Source: Nigrospora sphaerica
Lineage: Eukaryota; Ascomycota; Sordariomycetes; Amphisphaeriales; Apiosporaceae
Direction: 5' to 3'
Length of the DNA: 64,000 bases
Assembly: GCA_018287875.1 (NCBI GenBank)
Contig: JAGVVL010000013.1
Coordinates: 4,092,001-4,156,000, forward strand
Shown: positions 6,884 to 62,365 of the stretch, in pieces
How the letters are laid out: each line of letters begins with the position of its first letter
How positions within the stretch are numbered: the stretch's first letter is position 1
Made by a program: the position numbers and the translations under genes
Notes under the pieces: model-generated
The model's input: the letters and a program-made list of their open reading frames with translations, nothing else
Databases searched by the model: none
What the model was told of the DNA's origin: nothing

Positions 6884-8843
6884 GCTTTGGTGGCACCAAC
6901 GCCCACGCCATCCTCGAGGCGTACGAGCCGCCTAGAAATCGCGTGCCGGCGCCGATGGGGGCCCTGTTCACGCCCCTGACCTTTTCGGCCGCCAGCGAAG
7001 CGTCGCTCCGCGCCATGCTCTAGTCGTACGTGGGCTTCCTGGCAACGACGAAGCAGAAGACGCTGCACGACCTCGCCTACACGCTGCAGCACCGGAGGTC
7101 GACTCTGTCCTACCGTGTGGCCGTCGCGGCGCCGACGGTGACGGACGCGCGCGCCGCCCTTGAGGCCGTGCTGAGCAGCGACAAGACCAGTTCCAGCAGC
7201 ACGCGTCAGATCAGCGCCAAGGCAGCGCCGCGGATCCCCAGCGTCTTCACGGGCCAGGGCGCGCAATGGGCGCGCATGGGGGCCAAACTGCTCGAGACGT
7301 CGCCCTTCGTCTTCCAGCGTCTCGCCCAGCTGGACCAGTTCCTGGCCGAGAGCACCGCCAGCGACGCCCCGACCTGGCGCCTGCGCGACATGATCCTGAC
7401 CGAGCCGGCCGTGTCACGCATGGGCGAAGCCGCCATCTCGCAGCCGCTCTGCACCGCCTTGCAGATTGTGCTGGTCGACCTGCTGCGCTGCGCCGGCGTC
7501 AAGCTGAACGCCATCGTGGGCCACTCGTCGGGCGAGATCGGCGCCGCCTATGCTGCTGGTCTGCTCTCCGACGCCGACGCCCTCCGCGTCGCCTACTACC
7601 GTGGCTTGTACGCCAAGCTGGCCAAGTCGCCCAATGGCGGAAAAGGCTCCATGATGGCCGTCGGAACCACTTTCGAGGATGCTACCGAGTTCTGCGAGCT
7701 CGAGTGGTTCCATGGCAGGATTCAGGTCGCTGCACGAAACTCGGACTCCAGCATCACCTTGTCCGGTGACGAGGACGCCATCGACGAGGCCGTCATCATC
7801 TTTCAGGACGAAGGCAAGTTCGCTCGCAAGCTCAAGTTCGATACCGCCTATCACTCCTCTCATGTGGTCCCTTGCTTGGAGCCGTACCGGGCGGCCATGG
7901 AGAAGTGTGGCATCGAAGGGGGCGTGGCTACCGGGGTCAAGTGGTACTCGAGCGTGTACGAGAAGACGCTCATGACGCACAAGAAGATGGGCCCGCAGTA
8001 CTGGGTCGACAAAATGGTCAACGCCGTTCTATTCTCGCCCGCCGTCGGCGAGGCCTGGAACGCGAGCGGCCCGTTCGACCTCGCTATCGAGGTGGGACCC
8101 GCGTCCGTTCTGAAAACGCTGGCTCTCGACAGCATCGAGTCGGTTGCCGGACAGAAGCCTCCCTACACGGGCGTGCTGGCCCGCGGCAAAGATTACGTGC
8201 AGGAGTTCCACTGCCCTTGGCTACATCTGGACACAGCTGGGGCCGGGCTCGGTCGACTTCAGCTCGTTCCAGCGCGGCGTCGGGCTCCGAGGCCATCGGC
8301 CGCTTCCTGCCGAACCTTCCTAAGTACCCCTTCGATCACGCGCGCCATTTCATGGCCCTGTCGCGTTCTACGGGCCTTCACAAGGCGGCCAATGACCCGA
8401 TCCACCCCCTCTTGGGCAAGCGTTGCACCGAGAGGGAGACGTCGCAGAGCGTGGCGTGGCGCAACATTCTCGACGTGAAGGAGATCCCCTGGCTGACGGG
8501 CCATAAGATCCAGGGCCAGATGGTTTTCCCCGCCACTGGGTACATCTCCATGGCCATCGAAGCCATCAGCCACCTTGCTGGGAACGAGGAAATGAGCTTC
8601 TTCTAGCTGCGGAGCCTCCAAATCGTGAAGGCTCTGACTTTCAACGACGAAGACTCCAAGGTGGAGGTCCTCTTCGAGCTCCAAGCGATCAAGCGGTCCA
8701 AGGACGAGATCTTGGCCGATTTTGCCATTTACTCGGGCGCACCATATGATAAAAGCCCGTGACAGCCCTACTTAAGTGGTACCCACGACGCCGTTCTGAA
8801 ATTGGAAGGCTTCGCTAAGGCTTGCCCCCAATTGATATACAGA

Positions 8844-8991: not shown

Positions 8992-9025
8992 GCGACATGT
9001 TTATTCCACTACTTAAGTAAGTTTA

Positions 9026-10958
9026 AGCTAGGGGGTCGATCAAGGGACAGGCCCATCAAACCGCCACGCGTCTGGCGACAGTTTAAGGTGTTTCTTTTTT
9101 GCTTCAACACCGAATATATCAACCACCTACGGTTACATTTATTTAGAAGTCATACCATTCGAATTGCCACATTCTGTTCTTTCGTTTGATATCTATTATT
9201 ATAGATGAATTGCAGCTGGCTGCCGCTCTCCTCCAAGTCTGCCAAGGAGATTCCATCCGGTCTGTCGCCAAGCAATACAGAGTCTCTAGACACTACCTCA
9301 TGTCTCGTTTCGAGTGCAAGCCTCTTAAACGCACTGCTCAAAGGCATCGTCAAGCCCTCAGTGAGGTCCAGGAGCACTGGCTGGTCCAGTGGGTGTTGCT
9401 CCAGGTCAGACTTGGCTGGGCTCCTCAGCACAACCGCTTCAAGCTCTTCGCGCAGTCAATTATCTGTCAGTCCGGCAGCAGCCACACCATCGGAGATAGG
9501 TGGTATCGCCGTTTTTTTAGGCGCTGGCCGCAGCTGAAGACCATGCTCTCAAGGGGAATGGATTTCCAGCGCGTTAACAGCGCCACACGCGAAAACATCG
9601 AGGAGTTCTTCTCGAGGCTGAACGAGGAGCGCATCCGCGATATCCCTAAGGAGCACACATGGAACTTTGACGAGGTTGGAGCTCAGATCGGCCTTAGAGA
9701 CTGCCCTTTTGTTATCAGACTATCTGCTCTCACGAAGTTCTTCACTTTAGACACCACGAGAGGCGAGTGGACGACGTCTCTGGAGTCTGTCTCTGCAGCT
9801 GGCCGAGCCCTGTCTCCCCTAGTCATCTTTAAGGGAAGGCAGGTCCAACAGCAATGGTTTACCACTCAATCAGACAACGAGGACTTCGCAGACTGGCAAT
9901 TTGAAGCCTCAGAGGCCGGCTGGACCTCCAATTCAATTGCCCTGCGCTGGCTGAGACAGGTGTTCTTACCACAGACTACTCCAGACGACCCCAAGCAGTG
10001 GCGCCACCTTATACTCGACAGCCATGCCAGCCACTGCAGCGAGGAGTTCATATTGGAGTGTTTTAAGGCTAAGGTCTGGCTGAACTTCCTTCCGGCACAC
10101 ACCTCGCAGGTCCTCCAGCCTCTAGACCTTGGCCCCTTTTCGGTGTTGAAGCGCGTGTACCGGAAACACCTTCGCTAGGCCTGCGTGTCTAGTCTAACGA
10201 TGACGCCAAAGAAACCGGAGTTCCTGGAGGCCTAGAAAAAGGCTCGGAAGGAAGCCCTGACTCCAGAGCACATTGCCACAGGCTGGAAAGCGACCGGTAT
10301 CTATCTAAAGGACCCCCTCAAGGCCATTAACAGCCGACTGGCAAGGCAAAGGGACCAGGACAGGCCGGAGGGGTCAACTTGGAGCGTTCTGCAGCTGCCA
10401 GAGGACCCCCTGCTGTCGGAGATGTCCGCTATAGACGTTAAGACCCCAAGGTCTTCAAGGCAGATACAGTACATCCATCACGAATTGCGTGTGGTTAACT
10501 CAGTGTACAGCAATGCCACCTTACACCAGGTCTTCAGGAAGACCGGAAAGGCCTTAGACCTTGCAAGCGCCGAGATCTCCAGCCTTAAGCATGAACGCGA
10601 CCAATTGGCTGCTGCTCTGGATCTCCAGAAGCCCCAAAAACGTCGCAAGGTCCAGAAACCTGCTCAAGAGCGATTCGTGACCATGCTAGACGTTCGCAAA
10701 GTCAAGGAGGACTTGGCGACACCTGGTGGTGAGGCTGGTGCGGTCACTGCGCAGTCGCCATCGATCGCGTCGGGAAGTTCGGTTGCAGAAAGCATTTCTG
10801 ACATAGAGGAGAAGATAACAGTCTCTTTGAGCTAATCGGTCTGTCTGTATCTATTGTGGTTGTTAAGATAATTGGTTTTGTTTGCTTTAATGTTACATGG
10901 CGATGTCTTAAAACGCGTGGCGGTTTGATGGGCCTGTCCCTTGATCGACCCCCTAGCT
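9026..10958 (+). mobile_element. Pogo/Fot1-like DNA transposon, copy 1
   Basis: This is a 1.93-kb Tc1/mariner-superfamily element. Its terminal inverted repeat is about 45 bp: the left end reads AGCTAGGGGGTCGATCAAGG... and the right end is its near-exact reverse complement ending at 10,958. TA dinucleotides flank both ends (9024-9025 and 10,959-10,960), as expected for TA target duplication. It encodes one DDE transposase. It sits inside the block that splits the PKS-NRPS gene. Confidence 0.9.
9186..10835 (+). pseudogene. Pogo-like DDE transposase with two nonsense codons
   Basis: The protein starts with a helix-turn-helix (psq/CENP-B-like) region around DSIRSVAKQYRVSRHYL and continues into a DDE_1 catalytic core. 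The three acidic positions are visible: NFDEVGAQIGL, LILDSHASHCSEEF and SQVLQPLDLGPFSVLK. Two in-frame TAG codons interrupt the C-terminal part. One follows KHLR at about 10,176. The other, about 10,233, replaces Trp in 'EAWKKARKEAL'. Beyond them the same frame continues to a C-terminal region with a predicted coiled coil (ISSLKHERDQLAAAL) and a basic RRKVQKP patch, ending at TAA 10,835. The exact start codon is unclear; the frame is open from about 9186. It is probably inactive. Confidence 0.85.
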
Positions 10959-10960
10959 TA

Positions 10961-18105: not shown

Positions 18106-19933
18106 ATGCTGGCTGTGATGCGCATTGGTGCCGTTTACCTGCCGCTTGACCTACGCAACTCGATCCCGCGCCTGGCGAGCATCGTCCAGCGAGCAAAGCC
18201 AACGTTGCTGCTCGTCGACGGTACTACGGCGTCCCAGGCGCCGCTGATTGGTGGCGAGGGCGCCACACAGATTGACCTGACAAACCTGAAGGGCATGGGC
18301 GACGTCGCGACAACGACAAACCGCTCCGAACGCGACGCCCCTACCGTTGTCCCCTTCATTAGCGGTTCTACGAGCGAGCTTAAGTGCCTCATGATGAAGC
18401 ACGCGAACATTGTGACGAACGCCGAGGCTAATAGCCACATCTACGCTGCCACGGCGGCGGACCGTGAGGGCCTCGTCGTGCTGCAGCAGAGCGCCTTTAG
18501 CTTCGACTTCTCCATCGACCAGACGCTCGCGGCCCTTAGCAACGACGGGCGCATGCACGTTGTCGCCGCGCGCCACCGTGGTGACCCGGCCGCTATCAGC
18601 CAGATCATGCTGGACCAGAACGTCACCTACACATCGAGCACGCCATCCGAGTACGACATGTGGCTGCGCTACGGCGGCGAGTTACTCCGCCATTGCTTCT
18701 CGTGGCGCTCCGCCTTCTCGGGTGGCGAGGCCATGAATCCGGGCCATCATCGCCGCCATGCCCGACCTCCTGCGCACCGCCCACCTAAAGATCGACCGCC
18801 GCGCCGTCCCCGCCCTGCCAGTGCCCGCCGCCGCCATCTTGGGCGAGGGCAGCGACGGCACCCTCGGCGTCGCCGAGCGCCAGCTTTCGGCCCTCTGGCG
18901 CGAGGTCCTGCCGGTGGACCCAGGCGCGCTGACGGCCGAGTCCGACTTCTTTCTCGTCGGCGGCAACTCGATTCTGCTCGTCAAGCTGCAGGCGTGCGTG
19001 CGCGCCACTTTTGGCGCCGTACCCAAGCTCGTTACCCTCATGGGCGCGCACCAGCTCGGCGCCATGGCTGACGCCGTCGAGACGGGCTGCCGCGCCGCGA
19101 CGATGCCCATCATTGAATGGGACGCCGAGACGAGCGTGCCCACCGCCCTCGCCGCTGTCCGGTGGACGCCCCGCGCCCCCAAGACCGACGGCCTCACCAT
19201 CGTGCTCACCGGCGGCCACGGTTACCTCGGCCGCCACCTCCTCGCCGCGCTCGTGGCGGACCCCAAGGTGGCACGCGTCGAGTCGCTCGTGCGCAAGCAG
19301 TCCGAGATGCCTCTCGACGCCAAGGTGCACAAGACGGTGGCCGGACGTGTCCAAGCCCAAGCTCGGCCTGCCGGCGGGCGCCTCCGCCGCCCTCACCGAC
19401 GCCGCCGACGCCATGGTGCACTGCACCGCCAACCGCAGCTTCTGGGACCTGTACGAGGCGCTGCGCGGCGACAACGTGGCGTCGGTCAAGGAGCTCCCGC
19501 GCCTCGCCGCTGTGCGCGCCGTGCCCCTGCACATGCTGTCATCGGGCGCCCGCCAGCCGCCAACCGACAGTAGCGACGGCTATGTGGCCACCAAGTGGGC
19601 GAGCGAGACGTTCCTCCGCCGGCTCGCCGCCGAGGCGCCCGCCGGCGCCGCCCTGGCCTTCGCACACCGGCCGACGGGGGCTAGCGCGCCCGCGGCGGCC
19701 GGCACTTCCCCCGCCGCTGTCGGCGTCCAAGAGCACGGCGCCACCTTCCGCGTCGGCGTCGATGCCTTCGCCCGCGCCGTCGCCGCCGACGCCGACGCCG
19801 CCGTCGCCGCCCTGCCTGAGGCCCCGTCCTCGACTGGTTCGGCATGGCCAAGCGCACCGGCTTCGCCCACCTCATGACGTCCTGGGAGCTGACTATCGGC
19901 TCGCAAGAGGCCGAGCTCGCCCTGCGTCGTTGA
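18106..19933 (+). pseudogene. PKS-NRPS hybrid, 3' part (partial A, T, R domain)
   Basis: This is the C-terminal part of the same class of synthase. Adenylation-domain sequence begins abruptly at MLAVMRIGAVYLPLDL (A2 core) and continues through a damaged A3 core (FISGSTSELKCLM). It breaks at about 18,738, after SGGEAMN, and resumes in another frame with HLKIDRRAVPALP (A10 core), so the middle of the A domain is deleted. The thiolation domain follows (DFFLVGGNSILLVKLQ, with the phosphopantetheine Ser). A C-terminal reductase/Dieckmann-type domain comes next: TIVLTGGHGYLGRHLL for NADPH binding, CTANRSFWDLYEALRG, and the YVATKWASE Tyr/Lys pair. Frames change near 19,350 and 19,835, ending LALRR-stop at 19,931-19,933. 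The terminal domain would release the product by reduction or tetramate-forming cyclisation. Confidence 0.9.
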
Positions 19934-38047: not shown

Positions 38048-39598
38048 CTAGATTTGAAGATGGCCCACTGCTCGACCCGGTCTAGGCACGAAGCGGCAGG
38101 CAAAGCCCACGGGATGGCTCGTAAGCCCGTTGCTCAGCTTCAGTTCGGGAACGATCTCCCGCCCTTCAGCATCCAAGGCCCGCCTGATGTCGTATGTGGC
38201 AATCAATGAGGCCACCATGATCCACATGCTGGCCTCAGCGAGGTGCTGGCCTACGCAAACACGACGCCCGAAGCCGAACTGGCCCCTGGGATAAGGCTCG
38301 CCCCGGCCGCCGGCCTCAGCGGGCAGGTACCGTTCTGGCTCAAAATTGCCGGGATTCTCGTAGATCCGCTCGTCGTGCGTCATGGCCACAGCATTGGCGT
38401 ACACTAGCGCCCCGCGTGGGATGAAGACGTCGTCGTACACCTCGTCGTCGAGCGCCCGGTGGGGCAGCCCAAGGGGGCTAACGGGGCACCAGCGTAGCGT
38501 CTCCTGTACCAAAAGATCCACGTATGGGAGCTTTTCTCGGTCTTGAAAGGTGGGAAGCCGGTCACCAGTGCCGATGACCTGGTCGACGAGGGTCTGGGCC
38601 TTGGTTTGGACCATTGGGTTCTGCGCCATGCAGAAGATGAAGACCATGAGGGATGCCCATGTGGTGTCCTGGCCGGCGGCAAAAATTGCCACGGCGATCC
38701 CCTTCAGGTCCTCATCGGTTAGTTTGGCGCTCGCGTCACCCTCGCTTCCATTCTGCCGTTGATCCAGGAGAGTCCGCATCAAAGAGGTATTATCGTGACC
38801 GGAAGCCCTCACGACGTGGTCGAACGGCACGTCATGGAGGCGACGCACCGCCTTGCGCCAGCGGCGGGCAAACCGAAGGGGCTGATTTGGCAGGAGCCAT
38901 CCGGGCAGGTGACGGAGCACGGGAAAAATGTCGACAAGTGTTCCGGCGGGCGGGCCGCCGTGGCCGAGCGCGTACGAGGCGTCCTCGGCCATTGTCATGT
39001 ATTCGTCGTCGAGGCCCGTAATCTCGACGCCAAAGCCGATGCCTAGAACGACGGCGGTGGCAAAGCGGCGCAGCAGCACCTCCCAGGCCTGTGGATTCCG
39101 TGCGAGCCCATCCAGGAACACGCACGTCTCACGTTCCTGGAGGGCGCGGTACCGCACCACGCCGCTCTTTGCCAGGTTGCCTTGCAAGATGCGCCGGTGC
39201 AGGCGGAATGTGGGCCCCCAGCGCATGAAGGCCATGGTACACCGCCAGCCCATGACCTCGAACAGGACGAAACGAGGGCGGTCGCAATAGTTGGCCCCGC
39301 GTTTGTCTAGTAGTTCCGTGGCCGCCGTCGCGCTGTTGAGCACCACGACGTCCTGGAAGACCATGTTGAAGTATAATACATCTGAACCAAGCTCCTTGGA
39401 CCACTCTGTGAACTGGCCCTCCGGGTTGTACGGTCTGACCACGTTTAGGTGGCCAAGTATGGGGTGAGCAGGCGGCCCGGGGGGTAAGCGTGCATGCCGG
39501 CGCCAGGCCTTCCATTTGGCGGAGTGAAAAAAGAGAGAACGTATGGCAAGACCGAGAACAAAGTAAGTGGCAGTTGCCACAATAATAGCAACAGACAT
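38048..39598 (-). CDS. Cytochrome P450 monooxygenase
   Basis: A single uninterrupted exon of 516 residues, full length for a fungal microsomal P450. The order is: N-terminal membrane anchor (residues about 3-24); proline hinge LPPGPPAHPILG; I-helix oxygen-activation motif AAGQDTT (about 307-313); ETLR of the ExxR motif (about 366-369); PERYLP; and the heme loop FGFGRRVCVGQ with the Cys ligand (about 441-451). Overall it resembles the O-methylsterigmatocystin oxidoreductase (OrdA)-like group often found in secondary metabolism. The absence of introns and stops contrasts with the ruined PKS-NRPS region. It probably hydroxylates or otherwise oxidises a cluster metabolite at the ER membrane; the substrate is unknown. 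Confidence 0.95.
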   Translation of the reverse strand: MSVAIIVATATYFVLGLAIRSLFFHSAKWKAWRRHARLPPGPPAHPILGHLNVVRPYNPEGQFTEWSKELGSDVLYFNMVFQDVVVLNSATAATELLDKRGANYCDRPRFVLFEVMGWRCTMAFMRWGPTFRLHRRILQGNLAKSGVVRYRALQERETCVFLDGLARNPQAWEVLLRRFATAVVLGIGFGVEITGLDDEYMTMAEDASYALGHGGPPAGTLVDIFPVLRHLPGWLLPNQPLRFARRWRKAVRRLHDVPFDHVVRASGHDNTSLMRTLLDQRQNGSEGDASAKLTDEDLKGIAVAIFAAGQDTTWASLMVFIFCMAQNPMVQTKAQTLVDQVIGTGDRLPTFQDREKLPYVDLLVQETLRWCPVSPLGLPHRALDDEVYDDVFIPRGALVYANAVAMTHDERIYENPGNFEPERYLPAEAGGRGEPYPRGQFGFGRRVCVGQHLAEASMWIMVASLIATYDIRRALDAEGREIVPELKLSNGLTSHPVGFACRFVPRPGRAVGHLQI

Positions 39599-44386: not shown

Positions 44387-44690
44387 AAGTACCCAATGCC
44401 AGAGGTCTGATCAAGGACTTGCACCTATAAGTAGCCGTCCAGCTTCCACCGTAGAGATAAGACAACAACAAGACATGTTCACTTCTTTTTATCTTTTGAG
44501 ACCATCACTCGTAACCGTTTTTTCCCAGTTATTGTCCTAGTTGGACCTCACTTTTACTTGGGTGATAGATGTACCCTTGATCAAGGACTTGCACGTCCTA
44601 AATCGAGGGCATGTCTATCACATTATCGAGGATCGACCTCACGACCGCGTCTTTCCACCAGGCACTACATCTAGTGTTTGTCTGTTCTAA
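44387..44690 (+). repeat. Dispersed repeat A, left copy
   Basis: This about 300-bp sequence is the inverted copy of 62,059-62,365. It contains GATCAAGGACTTGCAC twice, CCGTCCAGCTTCCACCGTAG, and ATCGACCTCACGACCGCGTC near the right end. A shorter, degraded relative lies at about 11,260-11,305. The element type is unknown. TGCC...GGCACTACA ends would suit an LTR, but no target duplication was found. Confidence 0.75.
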
Positions 44691-44699
44691 TATTTAAGA

Positions 44700-45821
44700 T
44701 CGACACACTCTTACAAGATGAAGTTCTTACTTAAATAGGCATTGAGTAAATAAACATACGTTAATTATAATAAAAACCGATTTTAAGGACAAATAAGAGA
44801 TTATATATCGTGTTGTTCTTATAAAAAGTTCGTCCGTTGTAGCTTTTTAAGGCGAGTGGGCACGCTTAGCTAATTAAGAAATGGACGTATCCTAGCCGCT
44901 ATAACCTGGGATGCTAAGGATACCATCCGAGCTAGGTGTATATAAGAACTAAAAGGTGTGAGAACTGTAGCGCCTAGCTTATAATAGGATATAAATACCC
45001 GTAGCTGTGGTAGAAATGCCTAAAATATGCGAACTGCTACAGGCCAGCTTTAATAAGCAACGAGAACTGCTTAGCAAAGCTAGTGGTGAAACACGAAAAG
45101 CTAATACGCTTAACGCGAAGCGAGCTTATAAAGATCTGCTAAATCGGTAGCTTACTTTATAGGCAGCCTAACTATAAGAAATAAGCTAAAGAGGTAACAT
45201 ATTAAAGAAAGCTAGCTTAAGATTAAACACGCTTAATGTTATTATAGCAATAAAGGACTTAACCTATATTTCTATAGAAGTCTTAAGAATATAACTTTAG
45301 CCCTCTTGAAAGAATAAGACGAAGCGTAGCTAATAAATCACTCCACATATTAACTACTATAAATAAGGAAATCAATTAAACACACTTGATATACATTAAA
45401 CTAAGGCGACAAGTCTTATAAGTAACGTAAGCTAACGTAAGTAAATCGCCGCTAGCATATACAGCCTTACTATAGTAATATTAAGAGGACTATATAAACG
45501 TGATCTTTATATAAAAGCCATTTGTTATAAACAACAATAAGAATGAACTTAACTTGCACTTAGATTACAGTGCTTATGTTCTAATTAATAGCTAGAATAG
45601 CACTGCTACTCAGCCCTAGGTTATAATCTATGTTTAAAAGGACAGTAAGTTAAAAATGAGGTAAAAGCGGCTATAGAGTTTAAAGACCTCTCATAGCTAG
45701 AGATTAACCACTTTACCTTAATTAATATTTATAAACCCTCCATGAACTGCTAAGTTAAGCGATAAGACTCCTCTTAGGCCTACGACCACCGACTTAATAT
45801 ATAGTTGTAAAGGACTTTAAT
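44700..45821. other. TA-rich degraded DNA
   Basis: This stop-dense, TpA-rich sequence has no readable protein family and is probably RIP-affected transposon sequence. It ends with TTAAT at 45,817-45,821, the left target duplication of the next element. Confidence 0.5.
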
Positions 45822-46037
45822 TGTTACGGCATAGATACATAAGTACAAGGGCATAGCAACGTATGGACGACTTACTGCTGCCTGGCGGTACGTACCGCCG
45901 CTGGCTGGATATATTCCTGCCAAACAGTGACTGAGAAGAGCCTGTTCCTCCTCTTCTTTTCCTCTTCACCTGTAGTTTTCGCATCTCAATAGAACCCTTA
46001 GGTCATCAACAGATTCTTCGTTCCTTGAACCGTGACA
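45822..46037 (+). repeat. 5' LTR of degraded copy 2
   Basis: This 216-bp LTR runs from TGTTACGG to CCGTGACA and pairs with 61,517-61,732. It is preceded by TTAAT. Confidence 0.95.
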
Positions 46038-46075
46038 GTACGTAGCTGTAGGCGCGACCCACACACACCACTTAG

Positions 46076-51903: not shown

Positions 51904-51908
51904 AAATA

Positions 51909-52141
51909 TGTAACGGAATGATACGAATCGAACGAGGTGACTATGTGCACGCAATTCCAATGACTGGCTGGCTGTATTGACTTCAATCTGGCCGTCCCTC
52001 CGTTTGCGGGCGCGGCCAGATTCTGCATAAGGGCGCCCCGGATTAACGTGGCGCCGCTCCGCCGTTTCGGCGACCGCCCTGGCGCTTGCTTCCCGCCGGC
52101 GCGCCGACGCACCGCCGATCCGCCCGCCCGGCCCCTTTACA
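51909..52141 (-). repeat. 3' LTR of the young element
   Basis: 233 bp from TGTAACGG to CTTTACA, the same as 61,084-61,316 by eye. Confidence 0.95.
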
Positions 52142-52613
52142 ATGCCCCCCCAATTCCTGGGCCCGGTCTCCGGCGCCCGTGGAATTCCTATCGGTGGAGC
52201 GGTCTCGGGTGCGCCGCGCCGCGTGGGTCCTTGGCCCGCCACCTTGTGGTCGCCGCCCTTCGTGGGGTTGTCCTATGCGCTCGTTATGTCTGCTGGCCCG
52301 CCCATCGGCGGCCGGTCGTTGCCTGGGCGGCGCTGCCCCGCGCTGCGTGTTTGTCTCCAGTCGCGCTCTCTGTCGCGGCGGCCTCGCCGCCTCGCCGCCT
52401 CGCTGCCTCGCTGCCCGTGTTGCTGCCTGGGGCGCCGAGGGCTCGGCTTTGTTTGTAGCTCCGTACTCCATACCAACTCCTGGGTCGGCGCCTGGTTGCA
52501 GCTTTCCTTTGTTCCCGTTCCTTGTGGCAGGCGACCTCTCCATTCCCCGTACGTCTCGTGTTTCGTGACGCTCTCTGTTCCTCATCCATTCGTTCTTCGA
52601 CTGTTCGCCGACA

Positions 52614-55600
52614 ATGCTGTACCCGATCTACTCGCGCGAGGACGCGCTTAACCGCATTCGCGAGTGGGAGGTCCTCCCCGCCTGTCACTCTGTCTTTCGT
52701 TTTGGACACTCCGGCGGCCCTTTGTCCCGGAACGCCGACGACGATCTTGTCGTTTCCTTGTGCGTCCCGCATCCTGGTCGGCGCTCTATCGGGCCTCGCT
52801 CGGCTGCCTCGGGCGTTGCTAACCCTCCCCTCTAGCCCCAATGCCTTTTGTTGCAACAGTGTCACGACCGGCGCTGTTGATCCCTCTCTGAACTGTGAGG
52901 GTGCCGGCAAGTGCGGGATCTGCGCCATTGATCATCGCAAATGTGTCGCCGTTTGTGTTGCCCTTTGCCCGCGACTGTGTTGCGATGGCTGACGCGTTTA
53001 GATTCCCGAGGAATTGGTCGGTGCCGGCCGCGTCCTCACCGCTGGCATCGCCCATCTTCGCGTCCTTCAATACCGCGGTACCCACATGGGCCAGGTGGGC
53101 AGTTCCAATTGGAACTGGCGATACGTCCAAGCCTATGGGTCGCTCAAGACGGTCTACCACGAGGCGGCGATGGCTTTCCGCCTATGCTGCAATGAGGAGG
53201 ACATTGCCGTCTTCCAGGAGCGCAAGGAACAGAAAAAGCGCGAAGCCGCCAACTCCCTCGCCGTTGTTGAGGCGCAGAGCCAGCGCCGGTTCGTCCAATT
53301 ACAAACGGACATCCTCGCCGTGAGTTTCCCCTCCTTTCGCCGCCGCGTCGGCGTACTGGTTCTAATCGTGTTCCGGTAGGGCGCCCATGGCCAACGGGAG
53401 CCTGTCAGTGCTGAGGAGTACCAGCGGCGATACACCCTCGCCCTTCCTGTCGGCGATCGCAGTGCCGATAGCCTGTCCCGCCTTATCGCGCACTGCGAGG
53501 AACTTTATCGCCTAACCGTCGACAACTACGACGACAAGCTGTACCGCTGGGCGCCTGGATACCATTTTCTCGCGGGCGAGGCCACATCGGATATCGATTG
53601 GCAGCGTCGGTTCAAACGATCGCAGAAAAAAGGTGCTGCGAGGGTTGATTCGTGGTTTGGTGTCAACCACGCCCGGCGGGAGAAACATGGTAAGAGCCGC
53701 GTTGCTCGAGCAGGTCCCGCCGCCCCTGGTCGCCGTACCCCGGTGAGTCCTCCCCGTCTTCGTTTTGACGCGACCGGTCCTTAGTTAACACTTCCGGTAG
53801 GGTAGCAAGGCGTCTGTCCGCCGATCCCATTCCGACGCACGAGTCGACTCCGCCGGGCCTTCGTCGCCCTTCACGCCAGTCCCCGCCGCGATGCCTGGCG
53901 ATGAATCGCCTTCCGACGACGAGGACTCTGACGACGACGCCTCGAGCCTGGGTGCGGACACTGACGACGATGGCGAGTACGTCCAGTCGCCGTCCGGTCG
54001 CAGCTCTCCTTCCGGCTCCAGTGCCCGTCCTGGCCCCTCCGGCCGGGGTGGCTCGGGCGCGCCTGCGCTAGAGGATCGCGACCTGCTGTCCTCTGCTGCG
54101 TCCCTGTCGGACGCGCCGATGTCCTCTGCGCCGGCCTCTCGGGTCCAGCGCTCCACTCGTGCTGCGACACCCTGGCCCTCCAGCCCTGCCTCCGGCGTCC
54201 GCTCTGCTAGCGGTGCTCCCTCCGCTAGCGGCGCCTCCTCGATGGTGGAGTGGCGGGCCGAGCGGCGGATCCATCTCACGATGATCTCCAATACCTGTCC
54301 TCTGCCTGAGAAGCCTTGGTCCGCGGAGGAGTATCGCGACTGCGTCGCCGCGCGCTTGGAACTGTGGCATAAGTTCGACCAGGTCCCCACGACCGTCGCC
54401 GAGCCACCTCATTCGTCCGCTCGTGACCAGAAACTCATTGAGTTTCGCGATTTGGTTCCCCCCCGCCCTTCCGAGGTTGGAGGCCACCATAATCCTGTCG
54501 CAATGTACGACGTTTACCATACTGCCCGACGCGGTTTCGAGACCTGGCTTCGACGTCTACACCCCTTGCCTTCGTCCGGCGGCTCGCTGCCGTCCCCTCT
54601 CGTCGCCGGCGAACGGCCAGCGTACTTACAGCGCCTCTCCGGGCTATGGCAAGGCGAGTACGACCCGTTCGCTTCGCCTAAGCGGGTAAACTTCAGCATG
54701 CCCGGCGACGGCGGTCGCGACGTTTCCTCGCTGGACAGTAGCCGCTCTGGTTCCGATGTCGTGGACGGTCTGGACTCGTGCGGCCCTTCCTCTCCCTTGA
54801 GCGCGGTCGCCGACCCAGATGCGTCCGACGGCGGCAACGCCCTGTCCGTTGGCTCCGACACCGGCGGTGACCGCTCCCCTAGCCCTGATGGCGATGTTGA
54901 CATGGTCTCGGGGGCACTGACGCGTCGGCGCAAATGCCGCCACCCGCGCAAGCTCTTGCCCCGACCGGCCCGTCCGTGGACCCACACTGGACTGCCGAGC
55001 AATGGGCGCTCGCCCGCCGACGGGCCATGAACCGCATCCTCGAGCTGTATCCTGACCCCGCTCCCCTGTCAGCGTTACCGCCTTCCGGGACGTCCTTTGG
55101 GCCCGGCACTTCAGTCTCCACTCGGCGAACCGCGAGATAGACACGGCTATGCGCTGGGATTCCCATCCCGCGCCGCCTAGTGTTCAGCACACGCGAGACA
55201 CTGAGAACCTCGACGTGGCCACCATCACGCTCTCGGCGACGGCTGACGTCCTTGGTTGTGCTCCCCGAGCTGGCCATCTCTCTCTGGCTCGGCTTGCCCA
55301 GGCCGGCGGACGATCGCATGTCCTGCGCCGCTTCCCGATCGACGCTACCCGCCCCGATCCCATTGGAGCTGGGTACACACCCCGGTACGTCTCCGAGATC
55401 GTGACTAGCCTTCCGGCGGCGGCTCCTCCCCCTGCCGTTTAAGGACTGGTCCCCGGCCGCAATGGAGGAGTACTACAACAGCGCCTTCTCGTCACTCGGC
55501 TTGCGACGGATCAACGTCCTCGGTGGCATCGCTCCGCCCGCCGTCTCGCCGTCCTCGTCGACCCGAGGTGCCAAACGTCGCCGCTCTGCCGCCGACGACG

Positions 55601-55671
55601 CGGCTCACGGTCCCTCGGCTGGACCCCTCCTTCGCGACGCCTTCGCCCGTCTCGCCGCTAGGTCGCCCTGA
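52614..55671 (+). CDS. Antisense intron-containing cargo gene, unknown function
   Basis: On the strand opposite to gag-pol, exons join in phase. An upstream Cys-rich piece (NCEGAGKCGICAIDHRKCVA, about 52,895-52,957) joins 53,002-53,319 (IPEELVGAGRVLTAG... QLQTDILA). That joins 53,380-53,742 and then 53,801-55,030. Introns 53,320-53,379 (gtgagt...ctaat...ggtag) and 53,743-53,800 (gtgagt...ttaac...ggtag) are very convincing. Introns ending at 53,001 (CTGAC...TTTAG) and 52,835 (CTAACCCTCCCCTCTAG) are likely. The protein has a CxxC...H..C zinc-like motif, a Gln/Arg-rich helical stretch (FQERKEQKKREAANS), an acidic low-complexity region (PSDDEDSDDDASSLGADTDD) and Ser/Pro-rich linkers. Downstream coherent pieces follow in shifted frames: WTAEQWALARRRAMNRILEL, FRDVLWARHFSLHSANREID and DWSPAAMEEYYNSAFSSLGL, up to a stop at 55,671. 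Frame changes near 54,930, 55,067 and 55,440 may be introns, mutations or sequence errors. I do not recognise the family. The 5' end at ATG 52,614 is tentative. Confidence 0.6.
53320..53379 (+). other. Intron in cargo gene
   Basis: This 60-bp intron has GTGAGT donor, CTAAT branch and GGTAG acceptor. It is phase 0, joining LQTDILA to GAHGQREPVSAEEY. It lies antisense to the retrotransposon's own transcript. Confidence 0.8.
53743..53800 (+). other. Intron in cargo gene
   Basis: This 58-bp intron has GTGAGT donor, TTAAC branch and GGTAG acceptor. It is phase 0, joining GRRTP to GSKASVRRSHSD and leading into the acidic region in frame. Confidence 0.8.
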
Positions 55672-55840
55672 CGCGTCACCTAGTTTGCCGTCCCCTCATC
55701 CGCTGCGTCCTGCGCTTTGGCGGATCCTCGTCGCCCGTACGCCGCCTAGCGGACCTCCTGCGTCCTACTCTGCATGCCGCGTGCGACCTTCCACAGCAAT
55801 TGCATGGCTTAGCTCCGTGTACTTCTAGGCCCTGGCCTCG

Positions 55841-56443
55841 TTAATTGATCTGCTGCGCTTCGCGCCCCGCCACTCCGTGATTTCCTGTGCTCGGAGGGCG
55901 ATCGTCGTCCCATTTACGGTGGGACCGCCGCTTACGATAGCGTGCCACGATCTTCGGCGCGTTCTCCAGGTTCGCCTCTGGCTCCCAGGTGTTATATTCC
56001 ACCGGCCAGCCCATCCATTTCACGAGGTACTCCGCCCCTCGGGCGGTCGTCCTGTGTCGGAGGATATCCTCGACCTCCCACTCCTCTTGGTCCTCCACCA
56101 GTCCTGGGAGTGCCTCATGGTCCCCGGAGGCCTTGCCAGTCCATGGCTCCAACGATGACACTGGGAACACGTCGTGTATCCGTTCGTACTGCGAGGGCAG
56201 GGCGACCCTGTAGGCCACCTTACCAATCCTCTCCGTGACCTTTACCCGAATGTACGTCGGGGCGAGCTTCGCACCGCACTTAAATCGGAACCGCTTCGTC
56301 GAGAGGCCTACCCACTGACCTGGTTGGAACTCTTGGTCCTGGTGCCTTCGGTCGTAGCCCTTTTGTTGGGCTTTCACTGCGACGTCCCAGTGTTCTCTCA
56401 TACGCGCGCGGACCTCTCGGCTCTTCTGTAGCCGTTCTAACAC
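55841..56443 (-). CDS. Pol C-terminus: integrase tail and chromodomain
   Basis: This is the end of the polyprotein, in a frame shifted by one base from the integrase core just upstream (near 56,450). It has the integrase C-terminal SH3-like segment (QEFQPGQWVGLSTKRFRFKC) and then a chromodomain (WEVEDILRHRTTARGAEYLV followed by KWMGWPVEYNTWEPEANLEN). It is expected to target integration to particular chromatin. The stop at 55,841 lies tail-to-tail with the antisense cargo gene's end at 55,671. Confidence 0.85.
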   Translation of the reverse strand: MLERLQKSREVRARMREHWDVAVKAQQKGYDRRHQDQEFQPGQWVGLSTKRFRFKCGAKLAPTYIRVKVTERIGKVAYRVALPSQYERIHDVFPVSSLEPWTGKASGDHEALPGLVEDQEEWEVEDILRHRTTARGAEYLVKWMGWPVEYNTWEPEANLENAPKIVARYRKRRSHRKWDDDRPPSTGNHGVAGREAQQIN

Positions 56444-57423
56444 GCCCGCGCTCCGAAAGCGTTCTGCTTGGGGGCGAACTCCGTCATCCTCGGGTGAAAT
56501 CCATACAGCGCCTCAAACGGTGACACCCCGATGGAGTCGTGGCGGCGGTTATTATAGGCGAACTCGGCTTCGTGTAGCCCGGATGCCCATGTCGCCTCGT
56601 CGCAACACGTGCGTAACCACTTCTCTAGTGTTTGGTGCGTTCTCTCTGTCTGCCCGTCCGTTTGGGGATGGTACGCCGTGCTCAGCCGGCGTTTCGTTGC
56701 CCTTGCCTCGCACCACTCTTGCCAGAACCGGCTCGTGAGTAGGGAGTCCCTATCGCTCACAATCCCGAGGGGCGTCCCGTACCGGCATTCCACTTCCTTA
56801 TACAGGATATGGGCTAACTCTGCCGCAGTTAGGGTTTTCCTCGTGGGTAGGAACAGTGCCATCTTCGTGAATCGGTCCACGATGACTAACACGGCGTCGC
56901 AGGCGTCGCCCTCGGGTCGGCAGCTGATCGGCAGCCCAGTGATGAAGTCCATGCTAATCTCTTGCCAGGGTCCCTCGGGTAGCGGTAGGGATTGGAGTAG
57001 GCCGTACGGTTTGTGCCTTGGTCTCCTTGCTCCCTGGCACTCCTGGCATGACTCTGCGTACTGTCGCACCTCCTCGGCGATCGCGGGCCAGTGGAACTTC
57101 CTCGTGAGCAGCTCTAAGGTCTTATTCGCGCCTAGGTGTCCCGCCCTGGGGTCATCGTGGTGTTGGTGGAGTAGTTGGGCCCTTAACGCTCCCTCATTAG
57201 GGATGACTAGCCTTCCTTTAAATCGGAGGGCTCCTTCCTCGTCTAGGTGGTACCCCGCAGCTTGGCCTTGCCGCGCCTTCTCCATTCGTTCCGCGATGTC
57301 CCGGTCCTGGGGTTGTAGCCCCCGAATGAGCTGGTAGAACGCCTCAGTGGGCTTATCCGCCCAAGTGGTCTCGTTTCTTGCCACGCTTCGAGCCACTGCT
57401 CTCGGGAGCACCTGTCCCCCCAC
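56437..57423 (-). CDS. Integrase core of the young element
   Basis: This contains the HHCC zinc-binding module (HHDDPRAGHLGANKTLELL ... CQECQGA) and the DDE core. The blocks are ISMDFITGLPIS (first D), GIVSDRDSLLTSRFWQEW (second D) and STAYHPQTDGQTERTHQTLE (E). GPY/F-adjacent sequence precedes the chromodomain frame. It inserts cDNA into the genome. The frame is separated by single-base shifts from both RNase H upstream and chromodomain downstream, so Pol is not one continuous reading frame in this sequence. Confidence 0.9.
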   Translation of the reverse strand: MGGQVLPRAVARSVARNETTWADKPTEAFYQLIRGLQPQDRDIAERMEKARQGQAAGYHLDEEGALRFKGRLVIPNEGALRAQLLHQHHDDPRAGHLGANKTLELLTRKFHWPAIAEEVRQYAESCQECQGARRPRHKPYGLLQSLPLPEGPWQEISMDFITGLPISCRPEGDACDAVLVIVDRFTKMALFLPTRKTLTAAELAHILYKEVECRYGTPLGIVSDRDSLLTSRFWQEWCEARATKRRLSTAYHPQTDGQTERTHQTLEKWLRTCCDEATWASGLHEAEFAYNNRRHDSIGVSPFEALYGFHPRMTEFAPKQNAFGARAC

Positions 57424-61083: not shown

Positions 61084-61316
61084 TGTAACGGAATGATACG
61101 AATCGAACGAGGTGACTATGTGCACGCAATTCCAATGACTGGCTGGCTGTATTGACTTCAATCTGGCCGTCCCTCCGTTTGCGGGCGCGGCCAGATTCTG
61201 CATAAGGGCGCCCCGGATTAACGTGGCGCCGCTCCGCCGTTTCGGCGACCGCCCTGGCGCTTGCTTCCCGCCGGCGCGCCGACGCACCGCCGATCCGCCC
61301 GCCCGGCCCCTTTACA
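61084..61316 (-). repeat. 5' LTR of the young element
   Basis: 233 bp, the same as the copy at 51,909-52,141 by eye. It is followed by AAATA, the right target duplication. Confidence 0.95.
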
Positions 61317-61516
61317 AAATACCACGAGAAGTATCCAGATAACGCAGGACCGCCGAAGCGACTTGCTTTATAGCTTGACGCCGCAGCTAACGACAAAATC
61401 GATCTACCTCACGCCGATAACAACTCTCTGGCTTTGACGAACCAAACGAGAAAGAGAATTGCCTAGAAGAAGTGGCCAAAACTTGCGGATAAGTTTTATT
61501 TCTTAAGGGGGAGTAA

Positions 61517-61732
61517 TGTTACGGTATAGGTATATAAGTATAAGGGCGTGGCAACGTATAGACAACTTACCGCTGCCTGGCGGTACGCACCGCCGCTGGC
61601 TGGATATATTTCTGCCAAACAATAACTAAGAGGAGCCTATTCCTTCTCTTCTTTTCCTCTTCACCTGTAGTTTCTGCATCTCTATAGAACCTTTAGGTCA
61701 TCAACAGATCCCTTGTTCCTTAAACCGTGACA
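61517..61732 (+). repeat. 3' LTR of degraded copy 2
   Basis: 216 bp, TGTTACGG to CCGTGACA, preceded by a purine tract and followed by TTAAT. Confidence 0.95.
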
Positions 61733-61737
61733 TTAAT

Positions 61738-62058
61738 GCAAAGTATAGCGCTTAAGACTTAAACGTGCCTTAAACTCAGAACGGGGAGATTAAGGTTCAC
61801 GACTAGGCCATTGCTAACGAGCTCAGCTATATTAACAAGATAGAGATCTTAACATATATAGCGGGATAAACTATTGACTTAGCCTTCTTTAACATTTATT
61901 TTATAGTAGTGGAGATAGATCCAAGGCTTTAGATAAGTGTAAACTACAAAACGATCTGAATTTTCATTTTCTAAAGCGACTAAATATTAAGAACACGGTT
62001 TTATTACTCGATACTAAATAATAAACTCAAAGCTTTTATTAGCTAAATCGCGCTCGGT
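61738..62058. other. TA-rich degraded DNA
   Basis: No gene was recognised. It is the right-hand continuation of the degraded host sequence into which copy 2 was inserted. Confidence 0.45.
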
Positions 62059-62365
62059 ATTAGAACAGACAAACACTAGGTGTAGTGCCTGGTGGAAAGA
62101 CGCGGTCGTGAGGTCGATCCCTAATAATGTGATAGACATGCCCTCGATTTAGGACGTGCAAGTCCTTGATCAAGTGTACATCTATCACCCAAGTAAAAGT
62201 GAGGTCCAACTAGGACAATAACTGGGACAAAAACGGTTATTGAGTGATGGTCTCAAAAGATAAAAGAAGTGAACATGTTTTGTTGTGTCTTGTCTCTACG
62301 GTGGAAGCTGGACGGCTACTTATAGGTCTGCAAGTCCTTGATCGATTCTGGCATTGACGGGTACT
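62059..62365 (-). repeat. Dispersed repeat A, right (inverted) copy
   Basis: This is the reverse-complement partner of 44,387-44,690, nearly identical over about 300 bp. It includes GGTCGATCC, GACGTGCAAGTCCTTGATCA and CTACGGTGGAAGCTGGACGG. Confidence 0.75.

What the first reader, a model, noticed from the sequence alone, without database searches (positions are those of the whole stretch)
52142..55840. Intron-bearing gene carried antisense inside a young Ty3/gypsy retrotransposon
Seen: between the chromodomain end and the 3' LTR lies about 3.5 kb with coherent coding only on the strand opposite to gag-pol. It has at least two textbook fungal introns (53,320-53,379 and 53,743-53,800) and probably two more. 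Known: introns oriented antisense to the genomic RNA are not spliced from it, so they persist through retrotransposition. Inference: the element has captured a host gene, or carries a native antisense accessory gene, mobilised with its introns and possibly expressed. The encoded protein (CxxC...H..C motif, acidic tract, Ser/Pro linkers) is not a family I can name. Antisense accessory genes are, to my knowledge, unusual for fungal chromoviruses.
Basis: partly seen in the sequence, partly recalled or inferred. Interest (0 to 1): 0.88.

Follow-up and report, generated by a model that had tools for sequence, protein, structure and literature searches.

The report
Intron-bearing backward gene in fungal retrotransposon
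A very young fungal retrotransposon carries, on the strand opposite to its own genes, a real gene with introns that goes with the element wherever longer copies were found in this genome, and related retrotransposon lineages here carry comparable backward genes, so it looks like a standing part of the element rather than a freshly stolen host gene.

Summary
Between the chromodomain end (55,841) and the 3' LTR (51,909-52,141), the strand opposite to gag-pol carries a spliced gene: five exons, four GT-AG introns. It is coding, not chance: against a diverged genomic fragment (L021), dN/dS over exons 3-4 is 0.09, and 33 of 42 non-RIP differences fall on third codon positions.

The "captured host gene" reading is not supported as a recent event. 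All 20 longer gene copies lie antisense behind RT, an old RIP-damaged relative has the same layout (L054), and no intact parent was found in the assembly. The "native antisense accessory gene" reading fits.

Nor is it unique. Of six chromovirus lineages examined here, four carry (three clearly, one probably) an antisense Cys-containing gene and two do not. In three lineages an intron, placed by eye, falls two residues after the last Cys of C-x2-C-x6-C, phase 0. Antisense genes are already described in Boty (brtn) and plant elements. Most likely it encodes a regulator of the element; that function is inferred.

The parts
51909..52141 (-). 3' LTR of the element (element on minus strand); lies upstream of the antisense gene, candidate site of its promoter (inferred)
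   Evidence: identical to 61084-61316; TG..CA ends; TSD AAATA at 51904-51908
52142..52613 (+). leader between LTR and ATG; pyrimidine-rich (67% C+T in 52380-52613)
52614..52759 (+). antisense gene exon 1 (ATG at 52614)
   Evidence: counterpart in L022
52760..52835 (+). intron 1, GTGCGT..GCTAAC..CTAG, 76 nt
   Evidence: boundaries kept in L020, not fully in RIP-damaged L022 and L054
52836..52950 (+). exon 2, Cys cluster CC-x13-C-x5-C-x2-C-x6-C (putative zinc site, inferred)
52951..53001 (+). intron 2, GTTTGT..GCTGAC..TTAG, 51 nt, phase 0, two residues after the last Cys; same place as in L058/L059 and (GC-AG) L057
53002..53319 (+). exon 3; relics in L055 (36% over the exon) and L054
53380..53742 (+). 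exon 4, holds a WFGVNHARR stretch near its end; dN/dS 0.11 vs L021 for this exon alone
53801..55030 (+). exon 5 as read to the first stop in this copy (409 aa): acidic tract, Ser/Pro-rich; counterpart in RIP-damaged L054
55031..55671 (+). further plus-strand open stretches in other frames; end of the gene unsettled because homopolymer lengths differ between copies; no significant counterpart found in L054
55841..56443 (-). end of pol: SH3-like (Tf2-1) and chromodomain
   Evidence: PF00385 E 6.9e-19
56437..57423 (-). integrase
   Evidence: PF17921, PF00665
57486..58763 (-). reverse transcriptase and RNase H
   Evidence: PF00078, PF17917
58814..61060 (-). gag and 5' part of pol (assigned by position, no Pfam match)
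61084..61316 (-). 5' LTR, followed by TSD AAATA at 61317-61321

Best explanation
The region is a native antisense accessory gene of a Ty3/chromovirus family. Shown: it is a protein-coding, five-exon gene on the strand opposite to gag-pol, between pol and the 3' LTR; its exons 3-4 bear the mark of purifying selection, and all 20 longer copies found lie behind RT in the same orientation. Following from established knowledge: introns in this orientation are not spliced out of the genomic RNA (their splice signals are on its complement), so they survive reverse transcription. Inferred: a promoter in or next to the 3' LTR (51,909-52,613) drives a plus-strand mRNA that is spliced four times and translated into a protein of about 720 residues or more. 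That protein has an N-terminal Cys cluster (probably zinc-binding), a conserved exon-3/4 middle and an acidic, Ser/Pro-rich tail, the make-up of a nuclear regulator. It would act in trans on the element, most plausibly on LTR transcription or on the fate of the cDNA, much as HBZ does for HTLV-1 or as proposed for the antisense proteins of plant Retand and Grande elements.
For: Gene model: four GT-AG introns, all frames in phase; splice boundaries kept in L020 and, for introns 3 and 4, in L021. Selection: L021 vs window, 12/9/50 differences at codon positions 1/2/3; non-RIP classes 4/5/33; dN/dS 0.092 over 150 codons (binomial 2e-9 for 33 of 42). Integral part: the gene lies 1.8-2.6 kb behind RT on the opposite strand in 20 of 20 longer copies, and every RT place of this family listed (99 of 245 candidates scored there) belongs to one of these 20. 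Age: RIP-damaged relatives L022 (LTR, exons 1-2 and start of exon 3) and L054 (LTR, exons 3-5, weak RT match on the other strand) fit the same layout. Generality: L058/L059 (RT 49%) have a clean four-exon antisense gene; L061 (RT 46%) has a 210-aa antisense ORF whose 16 matches in this genome (itself included) lie antisense behind RT in 12 of 16 places; L057 (RT 53%) probably has one. An intron lies two residues after the last Cys of C-x2-C-x6-C, phase 0, in the window, L058/L059 and L057.
Against: There is no expression data, and the zinc site, promoter and regulatory role are inferred. Strong selection rests on one pair (L021) and on exons 3-4. The cruder tests on L054 and L022 gave no third-position excess of transversions (45/27/44, p 0.07; 4/4/5), at about 50-75% identity with heavy RIP; in L022 and L054 several splice-site bases are lost. 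L020 is uninformative because 308 of 336 changes are RIP-type. Exons 1-4 read without a break in only 8 of 19 young copies as assembled, and exon 5 stays open for 229 to 409 aa depending on the copy. Nearly all of these breaks sit in homopolymer runs and could be assembly error or real decay. The Cys motif alone is weak evidence: 277 of 20,000 shuffles of the window protein contain it. Profile comparison found no relation to the L061-type protein. Two of six lineages lack such a gene, so chromoviruses can do without it.
Confidence: 0.6

Rival explanations
1. The element recently captured a host gene together with its introns and now multiplies it.
For: The gene has short fungal-type introns and a GC3 of 0.69-0.71, close to a P450 ORF of the window at 0.73. 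Two relics with no recognisable pol within the 7-8 kb fetched, L053 (60 aa, 40%) and L055 (about 30%, by eye with intron 3 at the same place), show that related sequence also exists elsewhere in the genome.
Against: No intact parent gene found in the assembly. All 20 longer copies lie behind RT, and old RIP-damaged relatives fit the same layout. Related chromovirus lineages carry antisense genes with the same intron position. An ancient capture remains possible.
Confidence: 0.12
2. The antisense transcript, not the protein, matters: it pairs with the genomic RNA and feeds small-RNA silencing or self-limitation of copy number.
For: The position and overlap with the 3' end of the genomic RNA would allow it. 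PMC7264820 (passages read) proposes it for plant elements, and PMC8365987 (passages read) shows small RNAs from Botrytis LTR elements.
Against: dN/dS of 0.09 in the plus-strand frame and intron boundaries kept in L021 point to a protein product. Both functions could coexist.
Confidence: 0.13
3. The gene was brought in by another mobile element or is itself a passenger that hitch-hikes on the retrotransposon without helping it.
For: Pieces of the gene occur in other mobile settings: L021 is a 600-bp piece between 60-bp inverted repeats. No benefit to the element is shown, and two lineages do without such a gene.
Against: No inverted repeats around the gene within the element were reported. Its retention behind RT in all 20 longer copies and in old relatives argues for a use.
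Confidence: 0.1
4. Chance: high-GC sequence with long ORFs and accidental splice sites.
For: Many long ORFs on both strands at 65% GC.
Against: Codon-position signal and dN/dS 0.09; protein-level similarity to L054, L055 and L053; four introns joining open frames in phase.
Confidence: 0.03

Closest known systems
brtn of Boty-like Ty3 elements of Botrytis cinerea (Zhao et al. 2011, paper not held; seen as cited and described in passages of PMC8365987, PMC7264820 and PMC4227169)
   Same: Fungal Ty3 element with a chromodomain and an additional gene antisense to gag-pol; PMC7264820 places it between pol and the 3' LTR.
   Different: Whether it has introns is not stated in the passages read.
Antisense aORF-3R genes of plant elements (maize Grande gene23, rice RIRE2, Silene Retand; PMC7264820 passages, PMC11963269 abstract and passages)
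   Same: Same position and orientation, present in most copies, long pol-3' LTR region (2.9-6.6 kb in Retand, 3.7 kb here), proposed DNA-binding or nuclear regulators.
   Different: Different hosts. No Pfam match here, whereas Retand antisense ORFs encode the TRP28 domain (PF04195). Introns in the antisense gene are central here; the word intron does not occur in the main text of PMC11963269.
HBZ, the antisense gene of HTLV-1 (PMC7264820 and PMC11963269 passages; PMC10186651 seen in a search listing only)
   Same: Gene on the antisense strand of a retroelement, with an antisense promoter inside the 3' LTR; nuclear protein.
   Different: No sequence relation tested or claimed. HBZ is a bZIP protein (recalled); this one has a Cys cluster.
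MSGRIEK-type antisense gene of the L061 chromovirus lineage in the same genome (relatives in public data, one from Apiospora phragmitis)
   Same: Antisense, overlapping the end of pol behind the chromodomain, Cys cluster followed by a long predicted helix.
   Different: Intronless 210 aa; no detectable relation to the window protein by profile comparison.
Fungal Zn2Cys6 (Gal4-type) zinc clusters (spacing recalled)
   Same: C-x2-C-x6-C module; the L061 protein has C-x2-C-x6-C-x9-C-x2-C-x7-C, which fits the spacing.
   Different: The window protein lacks the first C-x2-C-x6-C half, and neither protein matches the Pfam model.

Membership tests
Ty3/gypsy chromovirus | RT, RNase H, integrase and C-terminal chromodomain in one element with LTRs | tested here: met
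   (RVT_1, RT_RNaseH, Integrase_H2C2, rve, Chromo); LTRs and TSD
Antisense accessory gene between pol and 3' LTR (aORF-3R) | position between pol and 3' LTR, antisense to gag-pol | tested here: met
Antisense accessory gene between pol and 3' LTR (aORF-3R) | present in most or all copies of the family | tested here: met
   20 of 20 longer gene copies lie behind RT, and the family's RT places listed all belong to them (lists capped)
Antisense accessory gene between pol and 3' LTR (aORF-3R) | sequence conservation as a protein | tested here: met
   dN/dS 0.09 vs L021 for exons 3-4; not shown for the other exons
Antisense accessory gene between pol and 3' LTR (aORF-3R) | transcribed from its own antisense promoter; nuclear product | not testable with these tools
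   no RNA or localisation data
brtn (Boty) | sequence homology to BRTN | not testable with these tools
   paper not held; no sequence available
Zn2Cys6 zinc cluster | C-x2-C-x6-C-x5-12-C-x2-C-x6-8-C (spacing recalled) | tested here: not met
   window protein has CC-x13-C-x5-C-x2-C-x6-C; Pfam none
Retand TRP28 antisense protein | TRP28 domain PF04195 | tested here: not met
   Pfam scan of the spliced protein: 0 families
Recently transduced host gene | intact homologous host gene in the genome, and element copies without the insert | tested here: not met
   relics only; no RT place of the family without the gene among those listed

The most novel reading that the evidence does not exclude
Fungal chromoviruses carry an ancient, intron-keeping antisense regulator gene. 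The window element and two lineages with only about 50% RT identity to it share a Cys-cluster exon with an intron at the same residue and phase, so the gene would predate their split and its introns would have passed through countless rounds of reverse transcription because they lie antisense. The window gene would then be a large, derived member of that family, a fungal counterpart of HBZ.
Probability: 0.35. Interest if true: 0.8.

Novelty: new variant of a known kind. Interest (0 to 1): 0.6.

Why it matters
According to the review read in passages (PMC7264820), the function of antisense accessory genes of LTR elements is unknown. Here a very young family (19 near-identical copies) carries one with four introns, which makes splicing, and hence expression, directly testable. 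If the shared intron position means common descent, introns become a record of gene age inside retrotransposons, where introns are normally erased. It also warns annotators: such genes can be called as host genes in fungal genomes.

Tried and rejected
Recent host-gene capture: rejected for lack of a parent and of gene-free copies among the places listed. Chance ORFs: rejected by the codon test. Known domains: Pfam gave no family at E up to 1 for the spliced protein and only a sub-threshold match for single exons (CDC26, E 0.11); the PDB sequence search gave one weak match (phospholipase, E 0.029, no stretch passing on its own); two protein-database searches, exon 5 and residues 1-320, gave none. 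The database does hold some fungal proteins, since the L061-type query found 14 relatives. Relation of the window protein to the L061-type protein: none by profile. A structure prediction for the L061-type relative P0002 (mean pLDDT 73.6, pTM 0.36, long helices) had no PDB match. First alignment of copies was wrong because minus-strand loci were not turned; redone. First codon test included non-homologous ends for L021; redone on the matched stretch. Its L054 and L022 results (no third-position excess of transversions) are kept as counter-evidence; in the same call the T>C/A>G class of L054 was 5/14/25. L020 was rejected as a selection test because it is RIP-mutated. A possible 37-nt intron inside the first exon of L058 was considered and left out; the frame is open without it. 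C-terminal stretches 54,934-55,668 found no significant counterpart in L054. Two further chromovirus lineages (L062, L063) were examined and have no such gene.
Full report
What is there. The window (64 kb of contig C5 of a 51.6-Mb, 33-contig genome, with at least 99 RT matches) contains a 9.4-kb Ty3/gypsy element on the minus strand. Its two LTRs, 51,909-52,141 and 61,084-61,316, are identical and flanked by AAATA on both sides. Pfam finds RT, RNase H, integrase, a Tf2-1-like SH3 domain and a chromodomain, so it is a chromovirus. LTR search of the genome gave 40 places (a lower bound): 37 belong to 19 full copies, two of them in tandem sharing one LTR; 36 of these 37 are identical over the full length and one lacks a base. 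The other three are a solo LTR, one near the start of contig C30 and one of the RIP-damaged copy L020. The burst is recent.

The antisense gene. Between pol and the 3' LTR the plus strand reads as five exons: 52,614-52,759, 52,836-52,950, 53,002-53,319, 53,380-53,742 and 53,801 onward, with introns of 76, 51, 60 and 58 nt. Exons 1-4 give 314 residues; exon 5 adds 409 to the first stop in this copy (723 in all). In exons 3, 4 and 5 (to 54,450) every minus-strand frame holds at least one stop, while the plus-strand frame used has none.

Is it coding? Between 51,904 and 57,180 the 19 young copies vary in 40 columns: 5 in the target site, 9 base differences and 26 gap columns, nearly all in homopolymer runs. 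They are too alike to test selection. L020 differs by 336 substitutions of which 308 are RIP-type. The useful comparison is L021, a 600-bp genomic fragment covering the end of exon 3, intron 3, exon 4, intron 4 and the first bases of exon 5: 12, 9 and 50 differences at codon positions 1, 2 and 3, and 18 of 117 in introns; in the classes RIP cannot make, 4, 5 and 33. dN/dS over 150 codons is 0.092; shifted frames of exon 4 give 2.5 and 1.4. Counter-results: on L054 and L022 transversions were not enriched at third positions, and several of their splice-site bases are lost. As assembled, only 8 of 19 young copies read exons 1-4 without a break, and exon 5 stays open for 229 to 409 aa.

Part of the element, not a recent capture. 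The gene lies 1.8 to 2.6 kb behind RT on the opposite strand in 20 of 20 longer copies (48 of the 99 RT rows entered), and the RT places of this family all belong to those 20. L022 (LTR, exons 1-2 and start of exon 3) and L054 (LTR, exons 3-5 at 31-43% aa identity with many stops, weak RT match in the opposite orientation) are old, RIP-damaged relatives that fit the same layout. Searching the genome with exons 3, 4 and 5 found no intact parent. Two relics have no recognisable pol in the 7-8 kb fetched around them: L053, 60 aa at 40%, and L055, about 30% over exons 3-4, by eye with an intron at the position of intron 3 and with a DNA transposon about 0.1 kb before exon 3. They leave an ancient capture open.

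Not alone. I looked behind the chromodomain in five other lineages of this genome, taken from the RT list. L058/L059 (RT 49%): a clean antisense gene, four exons, about 250 aa, Cys-rich start and acidic end. L061 (RT 46%): an intronless 210-aa antisense ORF overlapping the end of pol; of its 16 matches in the genome, itself included, 12 lie antisense behind RT (the other four have no listed RT nearby), and 14 relatives exist in public data, one from Apiospora phragmitis. L056/L057/L060 (RT 53%): a probable antisense gene, but the reading has an in-frame TAG in exon 1 and needs a GC-AG intron. L062 (46%) and L063 (44%): none. Count: 4 of 6 including the window, one of the four only probable.

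A shared intron. In the window, in L058/L059 and in L057 an intron falls two residues after the last Cys of C-x2-C-x6-C, in phase 0. The introns of L057 and L058 were placed by eye from the sequence printed and typed into; no program predicted them. The coincidence suggests common descent of the Cys exon; sequence similarity is too low to confirm it, and the motif alone is weak (in 277 of 20,000 shuffles of the window protein's first 314 residues, 195 of 20,000 for L061 and 3,024 of 20,000 for the L058 segment). The L061-type protein shows no such intron and no profile relation to the window protein.

Mechanism. Most likely (about 0.6 overall, less for the exact role) the gene makes a nuclear regulator of the element: a Cys cluster for nucleic-acid or protein binding, a conserved exon-3/4 middle and an acidic, Ser/Pro-rich tail. 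Its start lies 0.5 kb from the 3' LTR, so an antisense promoter in the LTR or the pyrimidine-rich leader would suffice. Promoter, zinc binding, nuclear location and target are all inferred.

Known background. [quoted passage not shown] PMC11963269, abstract and passages read: 97% of Retand clusters carry an antisense TRP28 ORF) and in Boty of Botrytis and Sclerotinia (Zhao 2011, not held, known here only through passages of PMC7264820, PMC8365987 and PMC4227169). Six literature searches listed no paper whose title or displayed start of abstract reports an intron-bearing antisense gene in a fungal chromovirus; most listed papers were not opened, and subscription journals are largely missing from the library. 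Term searches inside PMC2864245 and PMC4112212 found no occurrence of antisense. So the kind is known; the multi-intron form, the strong selection and the shared intron position make it a new variant as far as I could see.

Noticed in passing
window 45795-46040 and 61490-61735: Direct repeats (84%) on both sides of the young element, in AT-rich RIP-like sequence: probably LTRs of an older element into which the young one inserted.
   Followed up: partly
window 44423-44692 and 62058-62327: Inverted pieces (84-98%) about 17.4 kb apart flank the nested retroelements; a stretch overlapping this repeat also occurs in L021.
   Followed up: no
L021 1341-2474: A 600-bp piece of the antisense gene (end of exon 3 to start of exon 5) lies between 60-bp inverted repeats (98%), as if picked up by a small DNA transposon.
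   Followed up: partly
L055 4426-6358; window 9019-10960: A 1.9-kb repeat with about 48-bp inverted ends, 92% alike in both places, probably a DNA transposon, lies beside the L055 relic gene.
   Followed up: no
G000:C5:119567-138134: Two copies of the element in tandem share the middle LTR.
   Followed up: no
L061 2926-3558 and 15 further places: MSGRIEK-type antisense gene family of chromoviruses, Cys cluster plus long predicted helix, 28-51% identical to L061 elsewhere in this genome; worth a survey of its own.
   Followed up: partly
window 7030-8478, 18106-19573, 38048-39598: ORFs that look like acyltransferase (PKS), AMP-binding/reductase and cytochrome P450 genes (named from recall, not searched), perhaps secondary-metabolite genes near the repeats.
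   Followed up: no
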